From Actinomycetes bacterium (GTDB lineage Bacteria; Actinomycetota; Actinomycetes; Nanopelagicales; Nanopelagicaceae): 57,568 nt of DNA. The first letter of the stretch is position 1; every line of letters starts with the position of its first letter. The notes beneath the pieces were generated by a model. It was not told where the DNA came from. It saw nothing but the letters and a program-made list of their open reading frames with translations, and searched no databases. The DNA is taken from NCBI GenBank assembly GCA_025355765.1, contig JANXZB010000067.1:1-57568 (forward strand), written 5' to 3'. Shown here piece after piece: positions 4,326 through 34,643 of this stretch. The position numbers and the translations under genes were made by a program.

Positions 4326-5645
4326 CTACCTGGCCGCGGCAAAACCCAATTCAAGGTCAGCTTTGATGTCCTTGATGTTCTCAAGACCGATACTCAACCG
4401 AACCATGCCCGGCGTGATGCCGGCGTGGAGTTGTTCGTCGGGGTGCAATTGCGAATGAGTAGTTGAGGCTGGATGTATAACCAGTGATCGAACGTCACCG
4501 ATGTTGGCTACGTGACTGAACATCTTGAGCCCCTCGACGAACTTTCGTCCAGCTTCAAGGCCGCCTTTGAGTTCGAAGGACATGACAGCACCCGGCCCCT
4601 TCGGGGTGTATTTCTTTGCCAAGTAATGTAGCGGCGAAGAGAGCAAACCTGGATAACTCACACTATCCACTTGCGGGTGCTTCTCGAGCCATTCTGCGAC
4701 GGCTTGCGAATTCTCAACATGGTGATCCATCCGGAAACTCAACGTCTCCAAACCCTGGGCCAGAAGCCAGGCATTGAATGGCGAAACCGATGGACCCATA
4801 TCCCTGAGCAGCTGGAGTCGGGCCTTATAGATAAATGCAACATTGGCGCCCATTGCAGAATCAACACCCAAGGTCTTGGCATACACAAGACCGTTATAAC
4901 TCTCATCCGGTTTGTTGAATCCCGGAAAGCGATCCGGGAATTTTGCGTAATCGAAATTTCCCGAATCAACGATTGCGCCAACCATCGCTGTGCCGTGACC
5001 AGAGAGGAACTTAGTGGCCGCGTGTGTGACGACATCTGCGCCATAATCAATCGGTCTTGTCATATACGGGGTTGCGATCGTGTTATCTATCATCAGCGGA
5101 ACACCCGCAGCATGGGCGACTTTGGCGATGGCTTCAATGTCGATCATGATGGCCTGTGGATTTGAAATGCCCTCACCAAAGAAGGCCTTCGTATTTGGTC
5201 GAATCGCTCTGCGCCATGCTTCCATGTCTTGGGCATCATCGACAAAGGTCACTTCGATTCCGTACTTGGGAAGAGTGAAATTAAATAGATTGTAAGTGCC
5301 GCCATAGACATGCGGGCTGGCCACAATATGATCACCGGCTTGCGCCACGTTCATAATCGCAATGGCAGTAGCAGCCATGCCCGAGGCGACAAGAAGTGCC
5401 CCGACGCCACCTTCAAGTGCGGCGATGCGTTGTTCTACAACATCTTGTGTCGGGTTATTGATGCGGGTGTAAACGTATCCGGCTTCTGCAATGCCAAATA
5501 CGTCGGCAGCATGTTGTGTGTCGCGAAATTGATATGCAGTTGTTTGATAGATGGGGAGCGCACGAGAGCCGGTAACCGGATCGGGTGTCTGACCTGCATG
5601 TATTTGTAGTGTCTCAAAGGCCCAATCATTCGAACCAGTTGTCAC
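4326..5645 (-). CDS. metY: O-acetylhomoserine sulfhydrylase / aminocarboxypropyltransferase (MetY), copy 1
   Basis: A 439-residue Cys/Met-metabolism PLP enzyme of full length. Conserved features are the N-terminal ETLQIHAGQ, YQTTAYQFRDT, TRINNPTQDVVEQRIAALEGG, the phosphate-binding ASGMAAT, and the PLP lysine in HAATKFLSGHG. The C-terminal VRSLVIHPASTTHSQL is the MetY hallmark. It condenses O-acetylhomoserine with sulfide to form homocysteine. The start is GTG 5645, overlapping the stop of the upstream dehydrogenase as GTGA, so the two are translationally coupled. A close paralogue lies at 13632-14954 in this window. Confidence 0.93.
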   Translation of the reverse strand: MTTGSNDWAFETLQIHAGQTPDPVTGSRALPIYQTTAYQFRDTQHAADVFGIAEAGYVYTRINNPTQDVVEQRIAALEGGVGALLVASGMAATAIAIMNVAQAGDHIVASPHVYGGTYNLFNFTLPKYGIEVTFVDDAQDMEAWRRAIRPNTKAFFGEGISNPQAIMIDIEAIAKVAHAAGVPLMIDNTIATPYMTRPIDYGADVVTHAATKFLSGHGTAMVGAIVDSGNFDYAKFPDRFPGFNKPDESYNGLVYAKTLGVDSAMGANVAFIYKARLQLLRDMGPSVSPFNAWLLAQGLETLSFRMDHHVENSQAVAEWLEKHPQVDSVSYPGLLSSPLHYLAKKYTPKGPGAVMSFELKGGLEAGRKFVEGLKMFSHVANIGDVRSLVIHPASTTHSQLHPDEQLHAGITPGMVRLSIGLENIKDIKADLELGFAAAR

Positions 5646-13631: not shown

Positions 13632-14954
13632 ATGTCTGACGTCAAAGAATGGTCCTTCGAAACCCTCCAAATTCATGCAGGTCAAAGCGCCGACCCAACC
13701 ACCGGTGCCAGAGCACTTCCCCTTTACCAAACAACGGCATATCAATTCCGCGATACGACGCACGCTGCGAATCTTTTCGGTCTTGCAGAGCTCGGCAATA
13801 TCTATACCCGAATAAACAATCCCACTCAAGACGTCGTTGAACAGAGGCTCGCCGCCCTTGAAGGCGGAGTGGCTGCGCTGCTTCTGGCATCAGGATCGGC
13901 CGCCACAACTTTTTCGATACTCAATCTGGCCGAAGCGGGCGATCACATTGTTTCGAGCCCAAGTCTTTACGGGGGAACTTACAATCTCTTCCACTACACT
14001 TTTCCGAAATTCGGCATTGAGGTGACATTTGTTGAAGACCCCAATGATCTCGAATCGTGGCGGAAAGCAATTCGCCCTAACACAAAGGCATTTTTCGGCG
14101 AGACCATTGCCAACCCTAAGAATGAAATTCTCGATATTGATGGCGTTGCCAAAGTGGCACATGATTTCGGCGTTCCTCTCATCGTCGACAACACTGTGGC
14201 GACGCCCTACATCCTCCGCCCTATCGAACATGGTGCAGATGTTGTGGTCCATTCGGCAACGAAATTCCTCTCGGGTCATGGAAATACTGTGGTGGGGGCG
14301 ATCGTCGACGCCGGCAGATTTGATTACGCGAAATATCCTGAGCGTTTCAAGAACTTCAACGAGCCTGATGAGAGTTATCACGGCTTGGTCTATGCCCAAG
14401 CCTTAGGGGTGGGATCCGCGTTCGGGGCGAACCTTTCCTACATCTTCAAAATACGCCTGCAGTTGCTTAGAGATATTGGAGCCGCCGTCAGTCCGTTTAA
14501 TGCATGGCTCCTTGCTCAAGGCCTGGAAACTCTTAGCCTTCGGATTGATCGTCATTTGGAGAACGCGAAGGCCATTGCCGATTGGTTGGAGGCGCACGAG
14601 GATGTCGAGAAAGTAAACTACGCCTCTCTTGCGTCATCGCCATGGCATGAACTCGCCACCAAGTACACGCCAAAGGGTTCCGGCGCTGTCGTATCTTTCG
14701 AACTCAAGGGCGGAATTCAGTCAGGCAGGCGATTTGTTGAATCCCTCAAACTCTTCAGCCATGTCGCAAACATTGGCGATGTTAGATCCCTCGTCATTCA
14801 CCCAGCGACGACAACTCATTCGCAACTCAGCGCCCAAGAGCAATTGGATGCTGGAGTCACTCCCGGCCTTGTAAGACTAAGTCTGGGACTTGAAAACATC
14901 GCTGACATCAAGGCGGATCTCGAGAGTGGATTCACCGCTGCGCGGTCTTCTTGA
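13632..14954 (+). CDS. metY: O-acetylhomoserine sulfhydrylase (MetY), copy 2
   Basis: A 440-residue PLP enzyme colinear with the product of 4326-5645. Both share WSFETLQIHAGQ or WAFETLQIHAGQ, the TTAYQFRDT block, TRINNPTQDVVEQR, the PLP lysine motif ATKFLSGHG, and VRSLVIHPA-TTHSQL. Differences are spread over the whole length, as in an old duplication or separate acquisition rather than a recent copy. The expected role is homocysteine synthesis from O-acetylhomoserine. It follows the carbonic anhydrase and ends at a strong terminator. One copy may have shifted substrate (inference). Confidence 0.92.
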   Translation: MSDVKEWSFETLQIHAGQSADPTTGARALPLYQTTAYQFRDTTHAANLFGLAELGNIYTRINNPTQDVVEQRLAALEGGVAALLLASGSAATTFSILNLAEAGDHIVSSPSLYGGTYNLFHYTFPKFGIEVTFVEDPNDLESWRKAIRPNTKAFFGETIANPKNEILDIDGVAKVAHDFGVPLIVDNTVATPYILRPIEHGADVVVHSATKFLSGHGNTVVGAIVDAGRFDYAKYPERFKNFNEPDESYHGLVYAQALGVGSAFGANLSYIFKIRLQLLRDIGAAVSPFNAWLLAQGLETLSLRIDRHLENAKAIADWLEAHEDVEKVNYASLASSPWHELATKYTPKGSGAVVSFELKGGIQSGRRFVESLKLFSHVANIGDVRSLVIHPATTTHSQLSAQEQLDAGVTPGLVRLSLGLENIADIKADLESGFTAARSS

Positions 14955-14959
14955 CAGCG

Positions 14960-14998
14960 ACGCAGGCGCCCTTCGTATTCGAACGGCGCCTGCGTTTT
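14960..14998 (+). terminator. Rho-independent terminator after metY copy 2
   Basis: A perfect 11-base stem (ACGCAGGCGCC at 14960-14970 with its complement at 14985-14995), a 14-base loop, and TTTT at 14995-14998. It lies six bases after the metY stop codon, so it ends the carbonic anhydrase-metY transcript. Confidence 0.9.
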
Positions 14999-15026
14999 CA
15001 AACAATCGGGCGTAGACTTCCCAGAT

Positions 15027-29539: not shown

Positions 29540-30562
29540 ATGCCAGCCGTAACCGTTAAGGACATCACCGTTCTGCCAAGAGTGAGCGTGGATCCAACCC
29601 TTCGTGCCCGCAACGTAAAGAGCATCACCACCGCCCCTTCTGGCTTCGAGGGTGAGGGCTTTCCTGTCCGCCGCGCATTTGCCGGCGTCGACATGGCAGA
29701 ACTCGATCCGTTCGTTCACTTGGATCAAATGGGCGAGGTTGAGTACGCACCGGGTGAACCAAAAGGAACACCCTGGCATCCCCATCGTGGATTTGAAACC
29801 GTCACCTACATCATCGATGGAATTTTCGATCACCGCGATAACAACGGCGGCGGCGGCAGAATTTCAAACGGCGATACACAGTGGATGACAGCAGGTGCTG
29901 GAATCTTGCACATTGAAACTCCACCGGAGTCGTTGGTAATCAGCGGTGGTTTGTTCCACGGCTTCCAACTCTGGGTTAACCTACCCGCTGCCAAGAAGTG
30001 GTCTCCGCCTGCCTATCAAGATCTGCGAGCCAGCGAAGTTGCCCTCCTCGCCTCACACGACGGCGGAGCACTAATTCGCGTCATCGCGGGAAGCGTCGAT
30101 GGGCATAGCGGCCCGGGTTCCACGCAGACACCAATTTCATTGGTGCATGCGACATTGCAGCCAGGAGCCGAACTTCGACTTCCATGGCGCAAGGATTACA
30201 ACGCTCTGGTCTACACACTCGCCGGTGCAGGTTACGTCGGAGAAGAGGCACGTCCGGTGAGGATGGGCCAACTTACGGTTTTCGGCGAGGGCGACAGCAT
30301 CGTTGTGCGCGCTGCCGATGTTCAAGAGAGCCGCTCTCCAGAAATGGAACTCTTCATTCTCGGCGGCCAGCCGATCAAAGAACCGGTTGCGTGGATGGGG
30401 CCGTTCGTGATGAACACCAAGGCCGAAGTAATGCAAGCTTTTGAGGACTATCAAAAGGGATTGCTCGGAACGATTCCTGCGATCCACAAGGAGTCTTTGC
30501 CGACGAGCGAATCTGATGTCCTCAACGTGCATGGGGCACCGCAGACAATCATCGAGAAGTAG
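29540..30562 (+). CDS. Pirin family protein
   Basis: A 340-residue bicupin. The N-terminal cupin has the pirin signature PWHPHRGFETVTYIIDG with metal-binding His, and NGDTQWMTAGAGILHIE with the fourth ligand region. Pirins are iron-binding proteins; bacterial ones may have quercetinase activity or modulate metabolic enzymes. AAGGAGAG precedes ATG 29540. At 340 residues it is longer than typical 230-300-residue pirins, with a C-terminal extension of about 50 residues. Confidence 0.92.
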   Translation: MPAVTVKDITVLPRVSVDPTLRARNVKSITTAPSGFEGEGFPVRRAFAGVDMAELDPFVHLDQMGEVEYAPGEPKGTPWHPHRGFETVTYIIDGIFDHRDNNGGGGRISNGDTQWMTAGAGILHIETPPESLVISGGLFHGFQLWVNLPAAKKWSPPAYQDLRASEVALLASHDGGALIRVIAGSVDGHSGPGSTQTPISLVHATLQPGAELRLPWRKDYNALVYTLAGAGYVGEEARPVRMGQLTVFGEGDSIVVRAADVQESRSPEMELFILGGQPIKEPVAWMGPFVMNTKAEVMQAFEDYQKGLLGTIPAIHKESLPTSESDVLNVHGAPQTIIEK

Positions 30563-30578
30563 TCAGTAGGCGACTTCG

Positions 30579-30836
30579 CTAGCAAAGCACCAACAAATAA
30601 CGGGTTCGTCGAAGCGTTCTGAGTAGTCGGCTCCACAACAAAGCGAACCCAGTCGGTGGCATGTGGTCAACGGCGCCATCCTCTGGGGCATTCTCTAGTT
30701 TTCTCGTCATGAAATCAGCGTGACTCCAAGCAGTAAATTCCTTAGCTGGGCGATCGAACGCAGATGGCCCAGCTAGCAAACCCATCGGGTTAAGTCGCCA
30801 ATATCCCTTTTCTTTATCACCAGATGTATTGCCCAT
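30579..30836 (-). CDS. Hypothetical protein of 85 residues
   Basis: An ATG-initiated frame on the minus strand in the ~470-base space between the pirin gene and the first mini membrane protein. Its composition is protein-like (several Trp, Asp, His and Pro; AFDRPAKEFTAWSHADF), with a basic C-terminus (RLLRTLRRTR). No Shine-Dalgarno is seen upstream, and no family is recognised. It converges on the pirin gene. The rest of this interval (30837-31036) holds nothing else recognised. Confidence 0.4.
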   Translation of the reverse strand: MGNTSGDKEKGYWRLNPMGLLAGPSAFDRPAKEFTAWSHADFMTRKLENAPEDGAVDHMPPTGFALLWSRLLRTLRRTRYLLVLC

Positions 30837-31036
30837 ATCAAGAAGGTAAGACCGGTTGGCTCACAGGGCAAGGATTTCTCGCAACTTAACTGATCATGCT
30901 TTTCGGACGGGGCTTACAGGCTTGGGATTCTGTGAACATTCTGTGGTCAGGGCTTCGGGTGTAACAGAGCTCTCAGGCAGGACGTTTAGGCAGGTATACC
31001 CCACGAATATGTGTGGGCCCCACGAAAGGACGAGCC

Positions 31037-31162
31037 ATGATCGTGTTCATTTTATTGCCACTGATTATCTTGGTCAGTGCCGTCGGTATCTTCTCCCTGT
31101 CCTTCCAAGACCCCGACCGCGTGGCAAGCAACTACTCCCCGTATGCCGAAATCGAGAATTGA
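31037..31162 (+). CDS. Mini membrane protein (41 residues), first of a homologous pair
   Basis: ATG 31037 follows GAAAGGA at 31024-31030. The 41-residue product has one N-terminal membrane helix (MIVFILLPLIILVSAVGIF) and a short polar tail with PDRVASNYSPYAEIEN. The same pattern (ILLP-x3-LVS-x2-G, then P-D-x-V, then PY-x-EI-x) recurs in the gene at 31301, so two independent short frames preserve one protein design. This supports both as real genes. Probably a single-pass inner-membrane protein with a short outside or inside tail; function unknown. Confidence 0.65.
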   Translation: MIVFILLPLIILVSAVGIFSLSFQDPDRVASNYSPYAEIEN

Positions 31163-31300
31163 GGCAACTCTAAACAGGGCCGGAGTAACCCCCATTCACT
31201 CTTGAGAATTCACCCGCTGGCTTGACGTTGGAAATGCGCGGGACATCATCGCGACACTATCAATTGGGACTATTTGGTGCGCCTGATGAAAGGAATTCCA

Positions 31301-31456
31301 ATGTATCTATTGATCCTTCTCCCCTCTCTTGTGCTTGTGTCCGTGGGTGGAGTTATTGCCCTCATGCACGAGCACCCAGATAGCGTTGTAAACAAACATG
31401 ATCCCTACGGCGAGATCAACAGATCTTATGAAATCGAGTTGCGGCGTGTTGCCTGA
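31301..31456 (+). CDS. Mini membrane protein (51 residues), second of a homologous pair
   Basis: ATG 31301 follows GAAAGGAA at 31288-31295 with good spacing; the longer frame from 31274 has no such site. The 51-residue product has one membrane helix (MYLLILLPSLVLVSVGGVIAL) and a polar tail with PDSVVNKHDPYGEINR plus a ten-residue extension. It is homologous to the product of 31037-31162 along the shared 41 positions. The 138-base spacer between the two has no other gene seen. Confidence 0.65.
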   Translation: MYLLILLPSLVLVSVGGVIALMHEHPDSVVNKHDPYGEINRSYEIELRRVA

Positions 31457-31570
31457 ATTGGGTGCACCCCTCGACGAGGCTCTGTCCAAACGACGACCAA
31501 CACTTGTCGATACGTATCGCGAAGTGGATAACTCCGAAAAATTGTCAGCAGCGTCGACGAACATTCATAC

Positions 31571-32872
31571 ATGGCTGATGCGAACAACATATGCTCACAG
31601 GAGATTGATTTAGCGCAGGAAGTCTCTGCCCTCCTGCGCGCCACTCCAGGAATCACGTCGCTGACCGCGCTGTTGGAAATTGATCCCTTCTGTTTGGTCC
31701 AATCGGCACGAATTGACTACCTCGCGGCGTTGGAGCGCCAATCGAGTTGGTTACAAGCTGCGATGCAGCGCGCAATTGTCGCGGTTGCTGGCCAAGAACC
31801 GTCCCAGAACAATGACATTTGGGGTGGAGTGGACGATGCCGAACGAGAGGACATTGCCGCCGCACTTCGACTCTCTGGATCAAATGCGCAGATGCGCATC
31901 GACGTCGCGCGCACGCTCGTAAACCACCTGCCAAATACTTGTTCGGCCCTCGCTAGTGGCGAGATCTCGCCTTCGCATGCGACGACAATTGCCCGAGAGA
32001 CAGCATCTGCAATTCGGGATGGGTTGTCACCCATCGCAATTTACACAGTCGAAGTAAAAGCTCTCGCGCACTGTGAGTTCCACACTCCATCGCAAGTTGC
32101 CAACAAGGTCCGATCCACTCTTGCAAAGATCGCGCCAGAGGAATTCGAAGATAGCGTCGCCGCCGCCCGGGATACACGGCGAGTCTCCTGCTATCGCGAG
32201 AGCGATGGACTCTCCACAATCGTGGCAATCTTGCCTGCCGAGGATGCGCAGATCGTCATGTCGGCGATCGAGAGTTTTGTATTGAAGGGTGAAGACGATG
32301 ACCGGAGCATGGACATGAAAAGAGCGGATGCATTAAGCGCGCTTGCTTCTTGGGCAGTGACGCAGAAGGGCGCGGCTGTGCGTCCTCATCGTCGCCCCAT
32401 TACCGTCAATGTCACCGTGGATCTGCCCACCCTCTTGGGTTTAGCCGAGAATCCCGGCCAGTTGGCAGGTTATGGGGCGATTCCCGCCTCCCTTGCTCGC
32501 TCACTCGCGTCAGACTCCAAGTGGAGGAGGTTCATTACCGAGCCCACCACTGGCGCCCTTCTAGATTTTGGAAGAGAGAGTTACGAGCCACCCCAGCCCT
32601 TGGTGGATTTTCTTCTCGCTCGGGATCGCACCTGTCGTTTCCCCGGGTGTCGGGCTCCGGCGTATCTGTCAGATCTCGACCACGCGAAGAGTTGGGAAAG
32701 CGGAGGCACGACTTCGGCAGAGAATCTCGGAGCCCTCTGCCGTCGACACCACCGACTGAAAACTCATGGTGGTTGGAAATTAGAGAGTGCAAGCGATGGG
32801 TCATGTGTCTGGACCTCTCCCCACGGAAAGCGCTATCCCGTACCAGCTAGAGACATCCAAGAGGCAGTCTAG
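31571..32872 (+). CDS. DUF222/HNH endonuclease-domain protein (13E12 repeat family)
   Basis: A 433-residue protein of the 13E12-type family widespread in actinobacteria. The N-terminal ~310 residues are DUF222 (SGEISPSHATTIARET, DARIVMSAIESF-like core, RADALSALASWAV). The C-terminal HNH domain is complete: RDRTCRFPGCRAP with the zinc Cys pair, LDHAKSWESGG, and LCRRHHRLKTH. It probably nicks or cuts DNA, but cellular roles are undefined; many copies appear mobile or repeated in genomes. A 12-base palindrome (31508-31519) lies upstream. Confidence 0.9.
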   Translation: MADANNICSQEIDLAQEVSALLRATPGITSLTALLEIDPFCLVQSARIDYLAALERQSSWLQAAMQRAIVAVAGQEPSQNNDIWGGVDDAEREDIAAALRLSGSNAQMRIDVARTLVNHLPNTCSALASGEISPSHATTIARETASAIRDGLSPIAIYTVEVKALAHCEFHTPSQVANKVRSTLAKIAPEEFEDSVAAARDTRRVSCYRESDGLSTIVAILPAEDAQIVMSAIESFVLKGEDDDRSMDMKRADALSALASWAVTQKGAAVRPHRRPITVNVTVDLPTLLGLAENPGQLAGYGAIPASLARSLASDSKWRRFITEPTTGALLDFGRESYEPPQPLVDFLLARDRTCRFPGCRAPAYLSDLDHAKSWESGGTTSAENLGALCRRHHRLKTHGGWKLESASDGSCVWTSPHGKRYPVPARDIQEAV

Positions 32873-34270: not shown

Positions 34271-34643
34271 TGGTGGAGGTGCCGGGAATCGAACCCGGGT
34301 CCTTCGGTATCAATACAGGGCTTCTACGGGCGTAGTGTGTTTAACGCTTTCTCAGTCCCGGATCTCTTACACACGAGTATCCGACAGACTCATTCACGAA
34401 ACTGTTCTCTGATGCCGTCCGTGACGCCAACATCATGAAAAGCCTTCTTGCGACGTTAGACCCCGAATCGAAGGCTCACTCGGGCTAACGGACTAGGGAG
34501 CTCGCTTAGGCAGCGAGATCGAAGTCAGCGACAGTGTTTTTGGCGCTTATTTTTTTGCACAGGTTATTGGTTAACGAGATCATCCTGGCTTCCTCGGCCC
34601 GCTTCCCCTGACTCAACATCCAAAGTCGAGACCGTTCACCCCC
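34271..34643 (-). ncRNA. ssrA: Transfer-messenger RNA (tmRNA)
   Basis: The 3' end carries a tRNA-like T arm (CCGGG-TTCGATT-CCCGG) and an encoded CCA (TGGTGG at 34271 on the plus strand). The 5' GGGGGTG pairs with CACCTCC of the 3' acceptor strand. The tag reading frame runs from GCC at 34544 to TAA at 34506, giving the peptide AKNTVADFDLAA, whose LAA end is the ClpXP degron. Length is about 373 nt. The partner gene smpB lies just upstream. The exact 5' end is set from acceptor pairing. Confidence 0.93.

What the first reader, a model, noticed from the sequence alone, without database searches (positions are those of the whole stretch)
31037..31456. Tandem pair of homologous mini membrane proteins (41 and 51 residues)
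Two very short frames on the same strand, each with a good ribosome site, encode the same design: a 19-20-residue membrane helix starting with ILLP and LVS-x2-G, then a polar tail with P-D-x-V and PY-x-EI. Conservation between two short frames is hard to explain by chance and suggests a duplicated small membrane protein family, perhaps a regulator or subunit, that gene callers would miss. I cannot name a family.
Basis: partly seen in the sequence, partly recalled or inferred. Interest (0 to 1): 0.7.

Follow-up and report, generated by a model that had tools for sequence, protein, structure and literature searches.

The report
Lineage-specific tandem small membrane proteins
Two tiny neighbouring genes in a freshwater actinobacterium really do encode related one-helix membrane proteins that selection has kept, but the family is known from only one other species, its function is unknown, and it is a modest find of a familiar kind.

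Summary
Window 31037-31162 (41 aa, cp1) and 31301-31456 (51 aa, cp2) are homologous ORFs. Each has GAAAGGA exactly 6 nt before its ATG, a strongly hydrophobic N-terminal helix and an acidic tail. Similarity far exceeds composition controls, also for the tail alone, and lies at protein level: third codon positions are near random (pN 0.35-0.41, pS 0.65-0.95). Codon usage is gene-like. The host is a Ca. Planktophila-like freshwater actinobacterium (Nanopelagicaceae).

One relative was found: a single 44-aa copy in a sister species (JANXZF010000010.1), in the same slot between a pirin gene and a DUF222/HNH gene. No other of the 296 Nanopelagicaceae genomes held, of ~400-genome class and phylum samples, or of the viral, phage and plasmid collections showed one. 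Pfam, NCBIfam, PHROGs and PDB gave nothing. The family evolves 5-8 times faster at non-synonymous sites than its neighbours. It is a real, duplicated, lineage-restricted microprotein family.

Best guess at function (inferred, not shown): N-in/C-out bitopic accessory or modulator of a membrane complex. A membrane-active toxin and a YohP-like stress peptide are the main rivals. The CcoS look-alike failed its profile test. Novelty is modest: a new small family of a known kind.

The parts
31037..31162 (+). small membrane protein gene, copy 1 (41 aa, ATG to TGA)
31024..31030 (+). ribosome-binding site of copy 1, GAAAGGA, 6 nt before ATG
   Evidence: read directly; same motif and spacing before copy 2 and before the homologue in the sister species
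31301..31456 (+). small membrane protein gene, copy 2 (51 aa, ATG to TGA)
31288..31294 (+). ribosome-binding site of copy 2, GAAAGGA, 6 nt before ATG
29540..30562 (+). upstream neighbour: pirin-family gene (context only, not part of the small-gene unit)
   Evidence: Pfam Pirin E 2.7e-30 and Pirin_C 8.3e-28
31571..32872 (+). downstream neighbour: DUF222/HNH protein gene (context only)
   Evidence: Pfam DUF222 E 1.8e-29, HNH just below its cut-off

Best explanation
cp1 and cp2 are two tandemly duplicated genes for single-pass (bitopic) membrane microproteins of a family so far confined to two sister species of Ca. Planktophila-like bacteria. Shown by sequence: homology, coding constraint, a shared ribosome-site design, conserved genomic slot, no match to a described family. 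Inferred: the uncharged N-terminal helix (about residues 2-24) inserts with the N-terminus inside. The acidic tail (net charge about -3 in cp1, -2 in cp2, -5 in the sister protein), with invariant P-D-x-V and Tyr, lies at the outer face. There it docks on a larger membrane protein or on its own kind and modulates it, as other small accessory membrane proteins do. The two copies have diverged enough to have separate partners or to form a hetero-oligomer.
For: Homology and constraint. The polar tail is conserved on its own (P 5e-5, 2e-4, 0 of 20,000 for the three pairs), which a mere hydrophobic filler would not need. Gene-like codon usage: LLR per codon 0.062, 0.057 and 0.050, against a mean of 0.058 for pieces of long genes and -0.010 for spurious ORFs. 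Hydropathy of the best 19 residues is 2.6-3.0. AlphaFold gives a helix at 2-24 (pLDDT 83-88 over residues 1-20) followed by low-confidence short helices. The same slot is used in the sister species.
Against: No linked partner gene. The neighbours occur without the small genes in the other genomes examined. Only three sequences exist, so topology and docking are inferences from charge and from two short motifs. The high non-synonymous rate (dN 0.46-0.58 against 0.07-0.10 for the neighbours) is unusual for a subunit of a conserved complex. No ribosome-profiling or mass-spectrometry data.
Confidence: 0.45

Rival explanations
1. Small membrane-active peptide of the type I toxin kind (DinQ, TisB, Ldr): a short hydrophobic peptide that depolarises the membrane, held in check by an antisense RNA.
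For: Size, single helix, tandem duplication, patchy presence and fast divergence fit. DinQ is such a single-transmembrane toxic peptide (PMC3567139). One weak antisense promoter-like site lies inside copy 1 (31077 to 31049, minus strand).
Against: The promoter-like count in the region is at chance level (2 found, 1.2 expected), with none in the homologous locus. mRNA folds are not more stable than shuffles (z 0.18, 0.65, -0.61, 0.08). No Rfam RNA there. No GAAC-N4-GTTC LexA-like site within 1 mismatch. The acidic tail is conserved.
Confidence: 0.17
2. Envelope-stress or membrane-homeostasis peptides of the YohP kind, which act on membrane composition or fluidity rather than on one partner.
For: Same size class. 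YohP, 27 aa, alters cardiolipin, fluidity and membrane potential (PMC12719787). No partner gene is linked here.
Against: The conserved polar tail with P-D-x-V and Tyr suggests a specific contact. No expression data.
Confidence: 0.25
3. Divergent CcoS/FixS-type or similar respiratory small subunit (CcoS also starts M-x-x-L-x-L-(I/L)-P and has an acidic tail; this likeness is from memory).
For: Resemblance of the N-terminus and of the acidic tail, noted by eye only.
Against: The FixS model PF03597 does not find either ORF in the own genome at E <= 10; its only match is elsewhere and below cut-off. Pfam and NCBIfam scans are empty at E <= 10. No oxidase genes are adjacent.
Confidence: 0.05
4. Chance or decayed ORFs with no product.
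For: Very narrow distribution; fast divergence; lengths differ at the C-terminus (41, 51 and 44 aa).
Against: Excess of synonymous over non-synonymous change in all three pairs (P 1e-6, 0.015, 5e-9); tail conservation; identical ribosome-site spacing; gene-like codon usage.
Confidence: 0.05

Closest known systems
YohP (E. coli, 27 aa stress-induced small membrane protein)
   Same: bitopic microprotein of the same size class with no catalytic domain
   Different: no sequence relation tested or evident; the present family has a longer conserved acidic tail and is a tandem pair
Type I toxins / DinQ, TisB
   Same: short single transmembrane peptide; in toxin families tandem copies are common (own knowledge)
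   Different: no antisense RNA, structured leader or SOS box detected here; the tail is acidic and conserved
CcoS / FixS (PF03597), cbb3 oxidase maturation
   Same: N-terminal helix with an early LLP or LIP, acidic tail, 40-50 aa (from memory)
   Different: profile does not match; no oxidase genes next to it

Membership tests
FixS/CcoS (PF03597) | match to the family profile | tested here: not met
   neither ORF found at E <= 10 in the own genome; no Pfam match
FixS/CcoS (PF03597) | located with cbb3 oxidase or CcoI genes | tested here: not met
   immediate flanks are pirin and DUF222/HNH; oxidase genes elsewhere in the genome were not sought
Type I toxin-antitoxin system | antisense RNA gene opposite or next to the toxin ORF | tested here: inconclusive
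   only one weak minus-strand promoter-like site, chance-level count, none in the sister locus; no Rfam match; no transcript data
Type I toxin-antitoxin system | toxic on expression | not testable with these tools
   needs an expression test
Small bitopic membrane proteins (general kind) | one strongly hydrophobic helix in a protein under about 60 aa | tested here: met
   hydropathy 2.6-3.0 over 19 residues; predicted helix 2-24
Small bitopic membrane proteins (general kind) | conserved coding frame | tested here: met
   pS well above pN in all pairs; codon usage
Small bitopic membrane proteins (general kind) | translated and found in the membrane | not testable with these tools
   no Ribo-seq, proteomics or fractionation data

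The most novel reading that the evidence does not exclude
A previously undescribed, rapidly diversifying family of paired membrane microproteins that arose in one small clade of freshwater Planktophila-like bacteria, in the gap between the pirin and DUF222/HNH genes. It would be a case of recent origin and functional divergence of a membrane microprotein in a streamlined genome.
Probability: 0.35. Interest if true: 0.45.

Novelty: new member of a known kind. Interest (0 to 1): 0.28.

Why it matters
Freshwater acI actinobacteria are abundant and streamlined (own knowledge), and genes this short are usually missed by annotation. The locus shows that such genomes can gain, duplicate and keep membrane microproteins under selection. 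A family limited to two sister species is also a usable test case for how such proteins arise. It does not change any known mechanism by itself.

Tried and rejected
Family models (Pfam, NCBIfam, PHROGs) and PDB sequences: no match. A relation to CcoS/FixS was tested and not met. Wider homologue searches were empty or gave only chance-level partial matches: family/order 296 genomes, class sample 395, phylum sample 396, GTDB contigs, viral contigs, phages, plasmids. The one weak phylum match (G990, E 0.003) lies in a region covered by a 714-aa frame that reads like polynucleotide phosphorylase. A third, decayed copy in the 30563-31036 spacer, or remnants in the gaps of other genomes, was sought with a profile at full sensitivity and not found. 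A structured leader that would mark a toxin mRNA or riboregulator was not seen. The alternative upstream starts (GTG 31013, TTG 31274) were set aside because homology and the ribosome sites begin at the ATGs. Caution on the genome contigs and viral searches: they use short exact peptide patterns and would miss relatives as diverged as these three are from one another.

Full report
What is there. The two ORFs are at the stated coordinates and read as stated. Each ATG is preceded by GAAAGGA with exactly six bases between (31024-31030 and 31288-31294). The sister species has the same seven bases at the same distance, and copy 1 and the sister gene share GAAAGGA(C/A)GAGCCATG. The gap between copy 1 and copy 2 is 138 nt.

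Host. The best named matches of the adjacent DUF222/HNH protein are mostly freshwater-type actinobacterial MAGs: Actinomycetes bacterium GL140_4, acI-Phila, Ca. Nanopelagicaceae, Ca. Planktophila limnetica. The window therefore comes from a Ca. Planktophila-like Nanopelagicaceae genome (1.70 Mb in 138 contigs). The genus assignment is inferred from these titles.

More than chance. The two proteins align without gaps at 41% identity. Shuffling codons of one copy, even keeping helix and tail residues in their own segments, never reached the observed score in 20,000 trials for any of the three pairs. The tails alone give P = 5e-5 (cp1-cp2), 2e-4 (cp1-sister) and 0 of 20,000 (cp2-sister). Identity by codon position for cp1-cp2 is 0.51, 0.71 and 0.24, so the similarity lives in the protein and not in the DNA. 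pS/pN is 0.91/0.39, 0.65/0.41 and 0.95/0.34 for the three pairs, with Fisher P of 1e-6, 0.015 and 5e-9. Segment-shuffled controls give pN of about 0.61-0.64 and never fall to the observed values in 1000 trials. Codon usage of all three is at the centre of real genes of the window and above 88-93% of spurious ORFs.

Distribution. A 44-aa homologue, MYLLILLPFLLVTTLAAIFSLVFANPDQVLDDHYSYVDMDQQSN, lies in genome G013 (record JANXZF010000010.1), 34% identical to cp1 and 37% to cp2. It sits in the same slot between pirin and DUF222/HNH. G013 is the nearest relative by DUF222 identity: 87%, next best 81%. The gap between the two neighbours is 1008 nt in the window and about 490 nt in G013. In most other genomes with the same gene order it is about 50-300 nt (one has 444) and holds no such ORF. 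In three more distant records the gap is 1.5-2 kb and holds an ORF of about 300-360 aa on the opposite strand (one record also a second ORF of about 300 aa). No other of the 296 family genomes held has a convincing relative. Samples of the class and phylum gave none either, nor did viral contigs, phages or plasmids.

Evolution. Neighbouring genes are 87-88% identical between window and G013 (dN 0.07-0.10), while the small proteins show dN 0.46-0.58. They therefore evolve roughly 5-8 times faster at non-synonymous sites and still keep pN well below pS. cp1 and cp2 are as far from each other as from the sister protein. So either the duplication predates the species split and G013 lost a copy, or divergence after a later duplication was very fast. 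Shared start-region bases and the lowest pS hint that cp1 is the orthologue of the sister gene, but the sister N-terminus MYLLILLP equals that of cp2. This is not settled.

Structure and topology. Best 19-residue hydropathy is 2.6-3.0. AlphaFold, with only three sequences, gives a helix at residues 2-24 that is confident over its first 20 residues, and low-confidence short helices in the tail (mean pLDDT 72, pTM 0.32). No charge precedes the helix and the tails are net acidic. By the positive-inside rule this suggests N-in/C-out (inference).

Function. No described family matches. I looked for signs of a type I toxin (antisense promoter, structured mRNA, LexA-like box, Rfam) and found none above chance, which does not exclude it. 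The visual likeness to CcoS failed its profile test. The most likely reading is a bitopic accessory or modulator protein whose conserved acidic tail makes a specific contact. Known small membrane proteins such as YohP (PMC12719787) and DinQ (PMC3567139) show what such proteins can do, but no membership is claimed. Which partner, if any, is unknown.

Verdict. A real, overlooked, duplicated microprotein family with a very narrow distribution.

Noticed in passing
window 31526-31548 (L096); also upstream of the orthologous gene in L089, L091-L095, L097: A conserved element GGATAAC-N9-TTGTCRG lies directly upstream of the DUF222/HNH gene. Of 31 genomes, 13 have one match each and none matches the reversed control pattern; in 11 of the 13 (all one genus) it is just before the DUF222/HNH gene. 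The other two (G007, G043) are elsewhere, probably chance. It could be a promoter, operator or nuclease target; GGATAA also resembles part of a DnaA box.
   Followed up: partly
window 34271-34643, minus strand: tmRNA gene with tag AKNTVADFDLAA, which overlaps several spurious ORFs.
   Followed up: no
window about 4363-5472 (+) and 13826-15001 (-): Three pairs of small ORFs match between these regions in opposite orientation (55-69% identity), which suggests two paralogous genes in inverted order.
   Followed up: no
L078, L079, L086 (gap between pirin and DUF222/HNH): In these relatives the same gap holds 1.5-2 kb including a minus-strand ORF of about 300-360 aa (looks like a secreted HNH-type nuclease by eye), so the slot appears to take up genes.
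   Followed up: no
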